Source: Rhodococcus ruber NBRC 15591 (lineage in GTDB: Bacteria > Actinomycetota > Actinomycetes > Mycobacteriales > Mycobacteriaceae). From it: 64,000 nt of DNA. Shown piece by piece: positions 27,606 to 31,951 of the stretch (its first letter is position 1; every line of letters starts with the position of its first letter). The stretch spans positions 62,001-126,000 of the forward strand of contig NZ_BCXE01000014.1 of the NCBI RefSeq assembly GCF_001894945.1. Reading direction: 5' to 3'. Made by a program: the position numbers and the translations under genes. The notes below the pieces were generated by a model that had not been told where the DNA came from, did no database searches, and saw only the letters and a list, made by a program, of their open reading frames with translations.

Positions 27606-27971
27606 ATGGACAACAGCAACGACCACCGGGCGGACGCCACCGCCGAATCCGCACCGGACGACCTGCTCGACGGGCTGCGCACCGAACTCGACCGGGTCGA
27701 CGCCCGGCTCCTCGATACCGTTCGGGACCGGCTGCGCATCTGTGCCCGCATCGCGCACCTGAAACAGCGGCACGCGATCCCGATGCTGCAACCGGGCCGG
27801 ATGCAGGTCGTGCATGCCCGCGCCGAGTCCTACGCGCACCGCAACGACATGTCGCCGGAATTCCTGCACTCGTTGTACGCGCTGCTCATCGCGGAGGCGT
27901 GCCGGGTCGAGGACCTCATCATCGACGGTCCCGGCGCGGCGCCCGCCCAACTGCGCGAGACCCGGACCTGA
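27606..27971 (+). CDS. papB: 4-Amino-4-deoxychorismate mutase (PapB/CmlD type)
   Basis: A 121-residue AroQ-fold chorismate mutase-like protein. Its body (LDRVDARLLDTVRDRL, IAHLKQRH, PMLQPGRMQVV, LLIAEACRVEDLII) corresponds closely to Streptomyces PapB as remembered, which rearranges 4-amino-4-deoxychorismate to 4-amino-4-deoxyprephenate. The PMxQPGR block separates PapB from ordinary AroQ mutases. It is the first gene of a four-gene operon and ends 8 bp before papA. The preceding gap (27415-27605) holds the likely promoter, but no clear -35/-10 pair was recognised. An ordinary chorismate mutase is the alternative, made unlikely by the neighbours. Confidence 0.9.
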   Translation: MDNSNDHRADATAESAPDDLLDGLRTELDRVDARLLDTVRDRLRICARIAHLKQRHAIPMLQPGRMQVVHARAESYAHRNDMSPEFLHSLYALLIAEACRVEDLIIDGPGAAPAQLRETRT

Positions 27972-27979
27972 GACCGGTC

Positions 27980-30079: not shown

Positions 30080-30984
30080 GCGACACGACCGGCCTCGTCG
30101 TCGTCGCCGGGGGTGCCGGCGCGGTCGGCCGGATGCTCGGTGAGGCGCTGCGCCGCGACGGCGCCGACGTGCTGGTGGTCGACCCGGCCGCCGGCGACGA
30201 TCCGGGCGCGCTGCGCGACGATGTCACCGTCCCCACGGCGGCCGTGCGGGACGCGGTGCGGTGCGCCTCGATGCTGGTGCTGGCCGTGCCCGAGGCCACG
30301 GCGCTGGCGGCCGCCGCCCGGCTCGGTCCGCTGCTGTCGCCGGACGCGGTGCTGGTGGAGACCCTGTCGGTGAAGTCGGCGTGGGCGCAGGCGGGACGCG
30401 GGCGGGGGTGGTCCGCGCAGTGTGTCGGGCTGAACCCGATGTTCGCGCCGGCGCTGGGCATGGCGGGACGACCGGTGGCGGTGGTCGAGCACCGGCCCGG
30501 CCCGGCCGTCGACGCGCTGCTCGCGGCGCTCGACCGGTGGGGCGCGCGGGTGGTGCGGATGACGGCGGACGACCACGACCGGGTCGCGGCGGCCACCCAG
30601 GCGGCCACGCACGCGGCGGTTCTGGCGTTCGGGCTGGCGCTGGGACGGCTCGGCGTCCCCCCGTCGGTGGCGGCGGCGACCGCCCCGCCCCCGCACGTGC
30701 TGCTGCGGGCGCTGCTGGCGCGGATCGCCGGCGGCGCCCCCGAGGTGTATCTCGACGTGCAGGCCGGCAACCCGCACGCGGCGGCGGCCCGGTCGGCGCT
30801 GCGGGCCTCCCTCGACGAGCTCGAGGCGGTGGTCGAGACCGGATCGGTGGCCGGGTTCGCGGACCTGCTGGGCCGGGCCGCAACGCCGCTGGGCGCGGAC
30901 ACCGGCCGGTATCGTGAGCTGTGTGCGGAACTGTTCGCGGAACTGACGCACGAGGAAACGGAGAGCCGTCATGGCCGAGCCTGA
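30076..30984 (+). CDS. papC: 4-Amino-4-deoxyprephenate dehydrogenase (PapC/CmlC)
   Basis: A 302-residue NAD-dependent dehydrogenase of the TyrA fold. The N-terminal Rossmann motif is GGAGAVGRMLGEAL. Blocks shared with PapC are VGLNPMFAPALGM, AATQAATHAAVL, ATAPPPHVLLRALLARI and PEVYLDVQAGNP. It oxidatively decarboxylates 4-amino-4-deoxyprephenate to p-aminophenylpyruvate. The GLNPMFAP block replaces the GLHPMFGP form of prephenate dehydrogenases, as in other PapC proteins. The GTG start overlaps the papA stop, so the genes are translationally coupled. No dedicated aminotransferase is present; a housekeeping aromatic aminotransferase would complete p-aminophenylalanine. Confidence 0.9.
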   Translation: MSDTTGLVVVAGGAGAVGRMLGEALRRDGADVLVVDPAAGDDPGALRDDVTVPTAAVRDAVRCASMLVLAVPEATALAAAARLGPLLSPDAVLVETLSVKSAWAQAGRGRGWSAQCVGLNPMFAPALGMAGRPVAVVEHRPGPAVDALLAALDRWGARVVRMTADDHDRVAAATQAATHAAVLAFGLALGRLGVPPSVAAATAPPPHVLLRALLARIAGGAPEVYLDVQAGNPHAAAARSALRASLDELEAVVETGSVAGFADLLGRAATPLGADTGRYRELCAELFAELTHEETESRHGRA

Positions 30985-31951
30985 TCTGCCCGCCGCGCAG
31001 GGTCCGCTGCTCGTACCCGCGCTGCCCGACCACGATCCGCACGACGTCGTCGAGAGCGCCGTGGTGCGGGGACTGGCCCGGTCGTGGGGGCGGCGCGCCA
31101 CGGTCAAGAAGAGCGAACCGGATCTGGACGAGCTGTTCGATCCGGGCCGGCTGGATTTCCCGGACGAGCTCGTGCCGTTCCACACCCATCCCGCGTACCG
31201 CGCCCTGGACGAGGGGCGCCGGGCCCGGCTGCGGGGCTGGGGCTGGATTGCGTACAACAAGAATGTCATGGACATCGAGCAGTACGTGGTCAACCCCGGT
31301 TTCGCGCTGATCACGACGGACTTCTTCGGGGTCGGGCCGTCGGACACCGTGACCGCGGGGGTGCTGCAGGCGATGGTCGACGAGCAGTACCACACGCTCA
31401 TGCACCTGAACGCGAGCGCGGTGATCCGCCGCCGCCGTGGCTGGCACATGCCCGAGTCGGTGCTGCCGCCGTGCCGGACCGTGCGCGAGCACCGGGCCGC
31501 GGTGGCGGCGGCGCCCGATCCGCGGGGGCAGGCGCTGATCCGGTTGGCATTCACCACCGTCGCCGAGACCTCCATCAGCGCGTTCCTCGCTCTGATGACC
31601 GAGGACGCGGAGCTGCAGCCGGTCAATCGCACGACGGTGGCGCTGCACCGGCGGGACGAACTCAGTCACGCCTCCCTCGCCGCGGAGCTGCTGAAGATGG
31701 TGTTCACCGAGCTCGGGCCCGGCGACCGGGCGCAGCTGCTCGCGGCCCTGGCGGCGGGAATCGAGGCGTTCACCGGCTCGGATCTGGGCACCTGGGCAGC
31801 GATCGTGGACGCGGAGCGCGTTCCGGGTGGGCGGGCGATGCTCGCGGACGTGGCCGCGACACCCCCGCGGCGGGTGGTGCAGGACTGCAGCGCGATCCGC
31901 CGGTTGTGCACCGAACTGGGCGTCGTGGACGAGCTGCCCGTCACCTGGTAG
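30971..31951 (+). CDS. AurF/CmlI-type diiron arylamine N-oxygenase
   Basis: A 326-residue ferritin-like diiron oxygenase of the AurF family, which oxidises aromatic amines to nitro groups through hydroxylamine. All seven ligands expected from AurF are found at nearly the same spacing: E103, E138, H141 (DEQYHTLMH), E199 (VAETSI), H226, E230 and H233 (HRRDELSH). It overlaps papC by 14 bp and ends the operon. Relatives act on p-aminobenzoate (AurF) or on a p-aminophenyl peptide or product (CmlI). Next to papABC the likely substrate is p-aminophenylalanine, its keto acid, or a carrier- or peptide-bound form. Confidence 0.88.
   Translation: MAEPDLPAAQGPLLVPALPDHDPHDVVESAVVRGLARSWGRRATVKKSEPDLDELFDPGRLDFPDELVPFHTHPAYRALDEGRRARLRGWGWIAYNKNVMDIEQYVVNPGFALITTDFFGVGPSDTVTAGVLQAMVDEQYHTLMHLNASAVIRRRRGWHMPESVLPPCRTVREHRAAVAAAPDPRGQALIRLAFTTVAETSISAFLALMTEDAELQPVNRTTVALHRRDELSHASLAAELLKMVFTELGPGDRAQLLAALAAGIEAFTGSDLGTWAAIVDAERVPGGRAMLADVAATPPRRVVQDCSAIRRLCTELGVVDELPVTW

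What the first reader, a model, noticed from the sequence alone, without database searches (positions are those of the whole stretch)
27606..31951. papB-papA-papC plus AurF-type N-oxygenase: a p-amino/p-nitrophenylalanine operon
Four overlapping or nearly abutting genes encode the complete route from chorismate to p-aminophenylpyruvate, together with a diiron N-oxygenase that has all seven AurF ligands. This combination is known from chloramphenicol (cmlB/D/C and cmlI) and obafluorin-type pathways, but those clusters carry their own NRPS and tailoring genes, which are absent here. The operon lies between rbpA and ppm1, genes that are neighbours in M. tuberculosis, so it looks like an acquired nitro-aromatic pathway inside a core locus.
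Basis: partly seen in the sequence, partly recalled or inferred. Interest (0 to 1): 0.85.

Follow-up and report, generated by a model that had tools for sequence, protein, structure and literature searches.

The report
Core nitro-phenylalanine operon beside peptide synthetase
Four genes that very probably make an amino- or nitro-substituted phenylalanine sit at a fixed spot in Rhodococcus chromosomes beside a giant peptide-making enzyme, and the same genes in a horse pathogen, long read as ordinary amino-acid genes, may instead supply a peptide antibiotic.

Summary
In detail: window 27606-31951 encodes a CM_2 mutase, a fused aminodeoxychorismate (ADC) synthase, a PapC-type dehydrogenase and an AurF/CmlI-family N-oxygenase with all seven ligands. 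Sequence tests support a p-aminophenylpyruvate route plus arylamine N-oxygenation: PabB-type PIKGT lysine, best PDB hit 8hx6; TyrA H197 replaced by Asn in 66 of 66 named loci that matched (80 examined). Two side claims fail. The operon is no recent import: 17 of 18 genomes of the genus carry the oxygenase, and GC is normal. And an NRPS is not absent: a six-module NRPS lies 2 kb away (3402-25730, minus); NRPS adenylation domains lie within 10 kb of 55 of 66 loci with dehydrogenase and oxygenase. In Prescottella equi the operon adjoins a seven-module NRPS whose order (X-Ser-dX-X-dThr-X-X) and flanks match the humimycin A synthetase IupU; by gene order the operon is REQ23860-23830, two genes of which were read in 2010 as aromatic amino-acid genes needed for growth in macrophages. 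Best reading: a core supply module for a p-amino/p-nitro-phenylalanine residue used by humimycin-type and other NRPSs. Which module uses it is unresolved; Gordonia keeps the operon with no NRPS nearby; no chemistry is known here.

The parts
27606..27971 (+). CM_2-type mutase, proposed 4-amino-4-deoxychorismate mutase (PapB/CmlD role)
   Evidence: PF01817 59 bits; best NCBIfam model TIGR01803 CM-like at 69.6 bits, just under its 73.35 cut-off; 7 of 8 operon mutases scanned exceed it, the window's does not
27980..30079 (+). fused PabA-PabB 4-amino-4-deoxychorismate synthase (PapA role)
   Evidence: PDB 8hx6 809 bits over residues 10-687; TIGR00553 pabB 363 over cut-off 328; PIKGT lysine, own TrpE has PIAGT and own PabB PIKGT
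30076..30984 (+). PapC-type 4-amino-4-deoxyprephenate dehydrogenase
   Evidence: PDH_C over cut-off; Asn in place of TyrA H197 (criterion from PMC1173090)
30971..31951 (+). AurF/CmlI-family diiron arylamine N-oxygenase
   Evidence: PF11583 176 bits; 5hyg CmlI E 2.5e-78; seven ligands invariant in 17 sequences; own clade in tree
3402..25730 (-). six-module NRPS: C-(partial C)-A-C-A(Ser)-C-A-C-A(Thr)-E-C-A-C-A-TE with carrier domains between; start codon uncertain (25406 or 25730)
   Evidence: motifs, domain models and A-domain codes; NRPS N-terminus found left of rbpA in 13 of 16 same-genus loci, the other 3 contigs end too early
27009..27347 (+). rbpA
   Evidence: PF13397 142 bits
27359..27416 (+). 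27-bp perfect hairpin after rbpA, likely a terminator that sets the operon apart from rbpA
   Evidence: fold -71.1 kcal/mol, z -8.8; no T-tract found
33206..34006 (-). ppm1-type family 2 glycosyltransferase
   Evidence: PF00535 119 bits; conserved neighbour
34021..35598 (-). lnt apolipoprotein N-acyltransferase
   Evidence: LNT_N, CN_hydrolase
35595..37205 (-). amidohydrolase; a homologue lies beside the P. equi NRPS, as reported for humimycin clusters
   Evidence: PF07969 274 bits; 74% identical over 528 residues to the P. equi one

Best explanation
The four genes are a self-contained, mostly vertically inherited supply module. The fused synthase aminates chorismate to 4-amino-4-deoxychorismate, the mutase rearranges it to 4-amino-4-deoxyprephenate, and the PapC-type dehydrogenase gives p-aminophenylpyruvate; an aminotransferase encoded elsewhere (assumed; none is in the operon) makes p-aminophenylalanine (PAPA). 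The diiron oxygenase converts the aryl amine to a nitro group, on free PAPA, on the carrier-bound residue or on the finished peptide (timing unknown). The residue is loaded by an NRPS, most likely the humimycin-type lipopeptide synthetase at the rbpA locus (six modules here, seven in Prescottella) and, in other lineages, other NRPSs beside the relocated operon. Shown: gene identities, key residues, conservation, linkage. Inferred: each reaction here, use by the NRPS, and the module. My estimates: PAPA route 0.9; active N-oxygenation 0.8; use by an NRPS 0.65; use by the adjacent NRPS in this window 0.5.
For: Full-length match to the solved fused ADC synthase (8hx6, 809 bits; next 219) and the PabB-type PIKGT lysine in 48 of 49 named loci that matched (80 examined) and 43 of 44 G loci (53 examined); the exceptions L110 and L085 are one disrupted P. 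defluvii assembly. TrpE of this genome and of P. equi reads PIAGT, their PabB PIKGT, identities confirmed over NCBIfam cut-offs. H197 to Asn in 66 of 66 named loci that matched (80 examined) and 50 of 50 G loci (53 examined; the sets overlap); a 2005 TyrA review names absence of H197 as the mark of PapC (PMC1173090, passages). This genome has separate trpE, pabB, pabA/trpG, tyrA and aroQ, so the operon is not housekeeping. NRPS A domains lie in the held flank (10 kb or less each side) of 55 of 66 named loci with dehydrogenase and oxygenase, against 2 of 14 oxygenase loci without the dehydrogenase; in this genome about 4% of the sequence lies that close to an A domain, counted on the 21 listed of 36 matches, so a floor. 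Linkage recurs in different places: left of rbpA (this genus), right of the operon in Prescottella, by the S10 ribosomal operon in the R. fascians and erythropolis groups (S10, L3, L2 confirmed in L117 and L161), and at other sites in the opacus and maanshanensis groups. In R. fascians the pathway is split: CM-ADCS by rbpA beside a five-module humimycin-like NRPS, PDH-oxygenase by S10 beside another NRPS. P. equi: operon, one small gene, then an NRPS reading X-Ser-X(E)-X-Thr(E)-X-X-TE with MbtH, Lnt and amidohydrolase on its far side, as described for the humimycin/IupU clusters (PMC5550956, section 8; humimycin A Tyr-Ser-dTyr-Phe-dThr-Val-Val, PMC12024397, table passage). In R. equi 103S the four genes are REQ23860-23830 and IupU is REQ23810 (PMC2947987, section 27 and passages).
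Against: No chemistry. The A domains of the window NRPS other than Ser and Thr (DAYFTAAIV, DAFFVAGIE, DAFFAGAIM, DAFFLAAIM) match no aromatic code that I know, and in a tree the first and third group with the last position of the P. equi NRPS, Val in humimycin. DALF-type codes, seen in 8 of the 13 NRPS maps, also occur in NRPSs away from the operon. Of the 11 loci without a near A domain, three are short contigs but eight are not: five of five Gordonia, Antrihabitans stalactiti, P. subtropica and R. tukisamuensis. In six genomes of the Gordonia genus no listed A domain exceeds 55% identity to the first P. equi one. In the erythropolis-group genome G097 and in R. wratislaviensis G040 the humimycin-type NRPS sits at rbpA without the operon. 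iupU mutants of R. equi were reported without effect on virulence, while the operon mutants were attenuated (PMC2947987). No MbtH at the window locus, one elsewhere in the genome. The mutase had no residue-level test of ADC specificity, and the window's own misses the TIGR01803 cut-off.
Confidence: 0.6

Rival explanations
1. The operon makes a small nitroaromatic that acts on its own (p-nitrophenylalanine, a nitrophenyl acid or a corynecin-like amide) and the NRPS neighbourhood is inherited coincidence.
For: Gordonia keeps PDH and oxygenase (all four genes in 4 of 5 loci) with no NRPS within 10 kb, and in G. lacunae a GNAT acetyltransferase follows directly. Corynecins, p-nitrophenylserinol amides, are reported from Rhodococcus sp. 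H-CA8f (PMC10819586 and PMC9557007, passages), and antiSMASH calls a corynecin cluster at 100% in five R. erythropolis strains (PMC10819586). iupU and operon mutants of R. equi differ in phenotype.
Against: The CmlA hydroxylase of the chloramphenicol route was not found in this genome; 1 of 16 genomes searched had it, in a separate cluster with its own CM, PDH, ADC synthase, A-T-reductase protein and CmlI-clade oxygenase. The operon is next to an NRPS in several unrelated genomic places.
Confidence: 0.25
2. The product keeps the amine: PAPA is the building block and the oxygenase stops at hydroxylamine or nitroso, or acts on another arylamine.
For: The oxygenase falls in a clade apart from CmlI (70 rows, 99/97 support); substrate and end state cannot be read from sequence.
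Against: All seven ligands are kept, CmlI is the closest solved protein, and its gene overlaps that of PapC by 14 bp.
Confidence: 0.2
3. Redundant housekeeping: chorismate mutase, anthranilate synthase and prephenate dehydrogenase that boost aromatic amino acids, as proposed for REQ23860-23840 in R. equi (PMC2947987, section 27).
For: Published annotation; mutants attenuated in macrophages; general family names fit.
Against: PabB-type lysine and pabB model over cut-off, listed TrpE models below theirs, while the true TrpE of P. equi scores 932 bits on its own model; H197 replaced; N-oxygenase in the same operon; separate housekeeping genes. The mutants grew normally in broth.
Confidence: 0.03

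Closest known systems
REQ23860-REQ23830 of Rhodococcus (Prescottella) equi 103S
   Same: Same four genes in the same order beside the IupU NRPS (PMC2947987; P. equi DSM 20307 L111); the window genes are the homologous locus of the R. aetherivorans relatives
   Different: Published as chorismate mutase, anthranilate synthase, prephenate dehydrogenase and hypothetical protein
Humimycin A/B NRPS clusters (IupU)
   Same: X-Ser...dThr-X-X-TE order with a starter C domain, amidohydrolase and Lnt neighbours, rbpA locus
   Different: Window NRPS has six modules, not seven, lacks the E domain after module 3 and a local MbtH; published humimycins were synthesised with Tyr/Phe and no nitro- or amino-phenylalanine
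Chloramphenicol (cml) and Rhodococcus corynecin-type clusters
   Same: ADC synthase, mutase, PapC and CmlI-family oxygenase
   Different: No CmlA in the genome; oxygenase in a different clade from CmlI; a CmlP-like A-T-reductase was not searched for genome-wide
Obafluorin, pristinamycin and dnacin PAPA pathways
   Same: PapA/PapB/PapC logic (PMC1173090 and PMC5490192, passages; PMC7570522, listing only)
   Different: Other assembly lines; that pristinamycin has no N-oxygenase is recalled

Membership tests
p-Aminophenylpyruvate (PapABC) pathway | ADC synthase rather than anthranilate synthase | tested here: met
   8hx6 809 bits; TIGR00553 over cut-off; PIKGT against PIAGT of the genome's TrpE
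p-Aminophenylpyruvate (PapABC) pathway | PapC dehydrogenase lacking TyrA H197 | tested here: met
   Asn in 66 of 66 named loci with a match (80 examined) and 50 of 50 G loci (53 examined); aligned to GLHPMF of 2pv7
p-Aminophenylpyruvate (PapABC) pathway | mutase specific for ADC | tested here: inconclusive
   not the housekeeping AroQ; 7 of 8 operon mutases over the TIGR01803 cut-off, the window's own just below; no specificity residue tested
AurF/CmlI arylamine N-oxygenases (PF11583) | family match and seven diiron ligands | tested here: met
   176 bits against cut-off 29.6; ligands invariant in 17 sequences; 3-D model not obtained
CmlI orthologues | groups with CmlI (5hyg) in a tree | tested here: not met
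   CmlI groups with L074, L072, L080 and L167; window in the 70-row clade, 99/97 support
Chloramphenicol/corynecin gene cluster | CmlA beta-hydroxylase in the genome | tested here: not met
   PF18456 not found in G000; positive control G333 at 206 bits
Humimycin-type cluster | seven-module C-start NRPS X-Ser-dX-X-dThr-X-X-TE | tested here: not met
   window has six modules X-Ser-X-dThr-X-X; the P. equi neighbour meets it
Humimycin-type cluster | amidohydrolase, N-acyltransferase and MbtH in the cluster | tested here: inconclusive
   amidohydrolase and Lnt present at 34021-37205; MbtH only elsewhere

The most novel reading that the evidence does not exclude
Natural humimycins and their six-module relatives are nitro- or amino-aryl lipopeptides: one or more residues predicted as Tyr or Phe are really p-nitro- or p-aminophenylalanine made by the linked operon, so the synthetic humimycins lack part of the natural structure; and the R. 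equi chromosomal genes most tightly co-regulated with its virulence island (REQ23860/50) serve this specialised metabolite, not amino-acid supply.
Probability: 0.4. Interest if true: 0.88.

Novelty: new variant of a known kind. Interest (0 to 1): 0.7.

Why it matters
It would place a chloramphenicol-type aryl nitration module in the conserved chromosome of Rhodococcus and relatives, give an orphan antibiotic family (humimycins, so far predicted and synthesised as far as the papers seen here say) a specific missing building block that mass spectrometry can look for, and change the reading of two published R. equi virulence-associated genes from amino-acid supply to specialised metabolism.

Tried and rejected
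Horizontal acquisition in this strain: rejected. Housekeeping AroQ/TrpE/TyrA: rejected for synthase and dehydrogenase, unlikely for the mutase. Chloramphenicol/corynecin membership: CmlA not found, with a positive control. A DALF-type A-domain code as the nitro-phenylalanine signature: suggested, not specific once A domains of six genomes were listed. The CmlP-like A domain of L211 reads DASMQSAVC (rough, one alignment gap), unlike the window domains. A viral-contig search with the oxygenase found no relative. Structure prediction could not be started, so no fold test. The paper that reports the Rhodococcus corynecin cluster (Undabarrena 2021) was not found under the DOI I tried, so I could not check whether the public 'corynecin' cluster entry is this operon; I think it likely for R. 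erythropolis, unverified. Recalled, from no call: Ser and Thr A-domain codes, AurF/CmlI ligand numbers, the PabB lysine rule, the source organism of 2pv7, and the M. tuberculosis rbpA-ppm1 order.
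Full report
What is there. A 27-bp perfect hairpin after rbpA (27359-27416; -71.1 kcal/mol, z -8.8) suggests that the operon is transcribed apart from rbpA; the sigma-70 scan of the gap found no promoter-like site.

Enzyme identities. The synthase matches the solved fused 4-amino-4-deoxychorismate synthase 8hx6 over nearly its whole length (809 bits; next best 219) and passes the pabB model TIGR00553, while the TrpE models among the 25 listed of 46 stay below their cut-offs (the same for three further operon copies; two other PabB models, fungal and clade 2, also stay below theirs). 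It carries the PIKGT lysine of PabB; TrpE of this genome and of P. equi reads PIAGT, and their PabB reads PIKGT (both identities confirmed over NCBIfam cut-offs). The dehydrogenase has Asn where TyrA has His197: GLNPMF aligned to GLHPMF of the solved TyrA 2pv7, Asn in 66 of 66 named loci that matched (80 examined) and 50 of 50 G loci (53 examined; the sets overlap in species), while TyrA of this genome keeps GGHPM. A 2005 review states that absence of this His marks PapC (PMC1173090, passages). The mutase is best matched by TIGR01803; 7 of 8 operon copies pass its cut-off, the window's (69.6 against 73.35) does not, and the housekeeping AroQ of the genome is a different protein. The oxygenase is nearest to CmlI among solved proteins, keeps the seven ligands in the 17 sequences aligned, but falls in a clade of its own, apart from CmlI (70 rows, 99/97). 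The genome holds two further AurF-family genes.

Distribution. 17 of 18 genomes of the genus carry the oxygenase; the one without is 75% complete in about 950 contigs. Over the family, 110 of 401 genomes have it at E 1e-40 or better, in 8 of 31 genera. In 16 same-genus loci the order NRPS, rbpA, CM-ADCS-PDH-oxygenase, ppm1, lnt, amidohydrolase is kept as far as the contigs reach (NRPS N-terminus seen in 13 of 16; the other three contigs end before it). Operon GC is 0.729 against 0.732 for the window. The oxygenase tree puts Rhodococcus, Prescottella, Antrihabitans and Gordonia in one clade, with Gordonia nested next to Rhodococcus sp. RD6.2 (100/100), which suggests a transfer into Gordonia. 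The operon is therefore an old resident of this locus, not a recent import.

A 7442-codon frame at 3402-25730 (minus) encodes a six-module NRPS with TE. A-domain codes read X1 DAYFTAAIV, Ser, X3 DAFFVAGIE, Thr followed by E, X5 DAFFAGAIM, X6 DAFFLAAIM (Ser and Thr assignments recalled). R. zopfii, G006 and the left NRPS of strain HNM0569 have the same plan. Of 66 named loci with dehydrogenase and oxygenase, 55 hold an NRPS A domain in the stretch fetched (10 kb or less each side). Of the 11 without, three are short contigs (L092, L095, L096), five are Gordonia, and the others are L099 (Antrihabitans stalactiti), L105 (P. subtropica) and L113 (R. tukisamuensis). Of 14 oxygenase loci without the dehydrogenase, 2 do. 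The linkage is found in several genomic settings (the S10 ribosomal operon confirmed in L117 and L161) and survives a split of the pathway in R. fascians, where CM-ADCS sits by rbpA next to a five-module NRPS-Lnt-amidohydrolase block and PDH-oxygenase by the S10 operon next to another NRPS. Species are not independent samples, and the 4% background for this genome rests on 21 listed of 36 A-domain matches.

Link to humimycin and to R. equi. In P. equi (G055/L111) the operon is followed by one small gene and a seven-module NRPS reading X-Ser-X(E)-X-Thr(E)-X-X-TE, with MbtH, Lnt and a 74% identical amidohydrolase on its far side. Humimycin A is Tyr-Ser-dTyr-Phe-dThr-Val-Val (PMC12024397, table passage), predicted from IupU; the humimycin clusters were described as holding an amidohydrolase, an N-acyltransferase and an MbtH protein (PMC5550956, section 8). 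The same paper notes another NRPS family with the humimycin domain plan, so plan alone is not proof. In R. equi 103S IupU is REQ23810, and REQ23860, 23850, 23840, 23830 are chorismate mutase, fused 'anthranilate synthase', prephenate dehydrogenase and hypothetical protein (PMC2947987, section 27 and passages). Those authors found REQ23860 and REQ23850 to be the chromosomal genes most strongly co-regulated with the vap island, and the mutants attenuated in macrophages yet normal in broth, and proposed aromatic amino-acid supply. The tests here point to p-aminophenylpyruvate instead. That IupU is the P. equi NRPS seen here rests on gene order, module plan and neighbours, not on comparison with the deposited sequence.

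What argues against a simple story. The same paper reports no virulence effect of an iupU mutation, so the macrophage phenotype may not come from the IupU product. The variable A domains of the window NRPS look unlike the DALF-type domains of the seven-module NRPSs, and the first and third group with a position read as Val in humimycin; DALF-type domains also occur away from the operon. Gordonia has the operon without a near NRPS, and in six genomes of that genus no listed A domain exceeds 55% identity to the first P. equi one. In the erythropolis-group genome G097 and in R. wratislaviensis G040 the humimycin-type NRPS and the operon are apart; in G097 the operon lies by a different stretch of 14 A domains. 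Hence I put use by the adjacent NRPS in this window at only 0.5.

Known and new. PAPA pathways, AurF/CmlI enzymes, humimycins and corynecins are known. In the library searched, the listing for humimycin, nitrophenylalanine, aminophenylalanine and N-oxygenase (two or more of four terms; 15 of 19 papers listed) showed none joining humimycin with the others; none joins Rhodococcus with aminophenylalanine and N-oxygenase; only the 2010 paper named the REQ genes searched. AntiSMASH 'corynecin' labels in Rhodococcus and Prescottella (PMC10819586, PMC10972888, PMC11303147; passages) may already touch this operon. I therefore call it a new variant of a known kind.

Noticed in passing
L074 / L211 (G333:C15:45001-60000): A chloramphenicol/corynecin-like cluster in one genome of the R. 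fascians group: CM, PDH, ADC synthase, CmlA (PF18456 204 bits), an A-T-reductase protein and an oxygenase that groups with CmlI.
   Followed up: partly
L072, L076, L080 (second copies in large-genome Rhodococcus relatives): Second oxygenase copies with no CM/ADCS/PDH match in the 20 kb fetched; L072 and L080 group with CmlI rather than with the operon clade. Function unknown.
   Followed up: no
L150, L156, L158, L160, L164 (Gordonia): The operon stands without an NRPS within 10 kb; in G. lacunae a GNAT acetyltransferase follows and a resolvase gene lies upstream.
   Followed up: partly
G040:C25:596068-598113: Second fused ADC synthase (65%) in R. wratislaviensis beside another NRPS with three DAFVLAGVM codes.
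   Followed up: partly
L114, L123, L124, L129, L132, L134, L135, L148, L152, L155 (Streptomyces): Streptomyces oxygenase loci: 7 of 10 with an ADC synthase match and none with a PapC match in the DNA held, in several unrelated gene settings; possible other nitroaryl pathways.
   Followed up: no
G007:C1:2382021-2382988 and L110/L085: Oxygenase match split in two frames in one genome of the genus; operon and NRPS matches broken in several places in one P. defluvii assembly, perhaps sequencing errors.
   Followed up: no
window 23439-25364 (minus): The NRPS N-terminus holds a starter C domain (about 24327-25364) followed by a partial second C domain (about 23439-24041) before A1; two C hits before A1 also in P. 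equi and R. maanshanensis.
   Followed up: no
L138: A record titled Rhodococcus ruber IEGM 1391 falls in the R. fascians clade of the oxygenase tree, so it may be misnamed.
   Followed up: no
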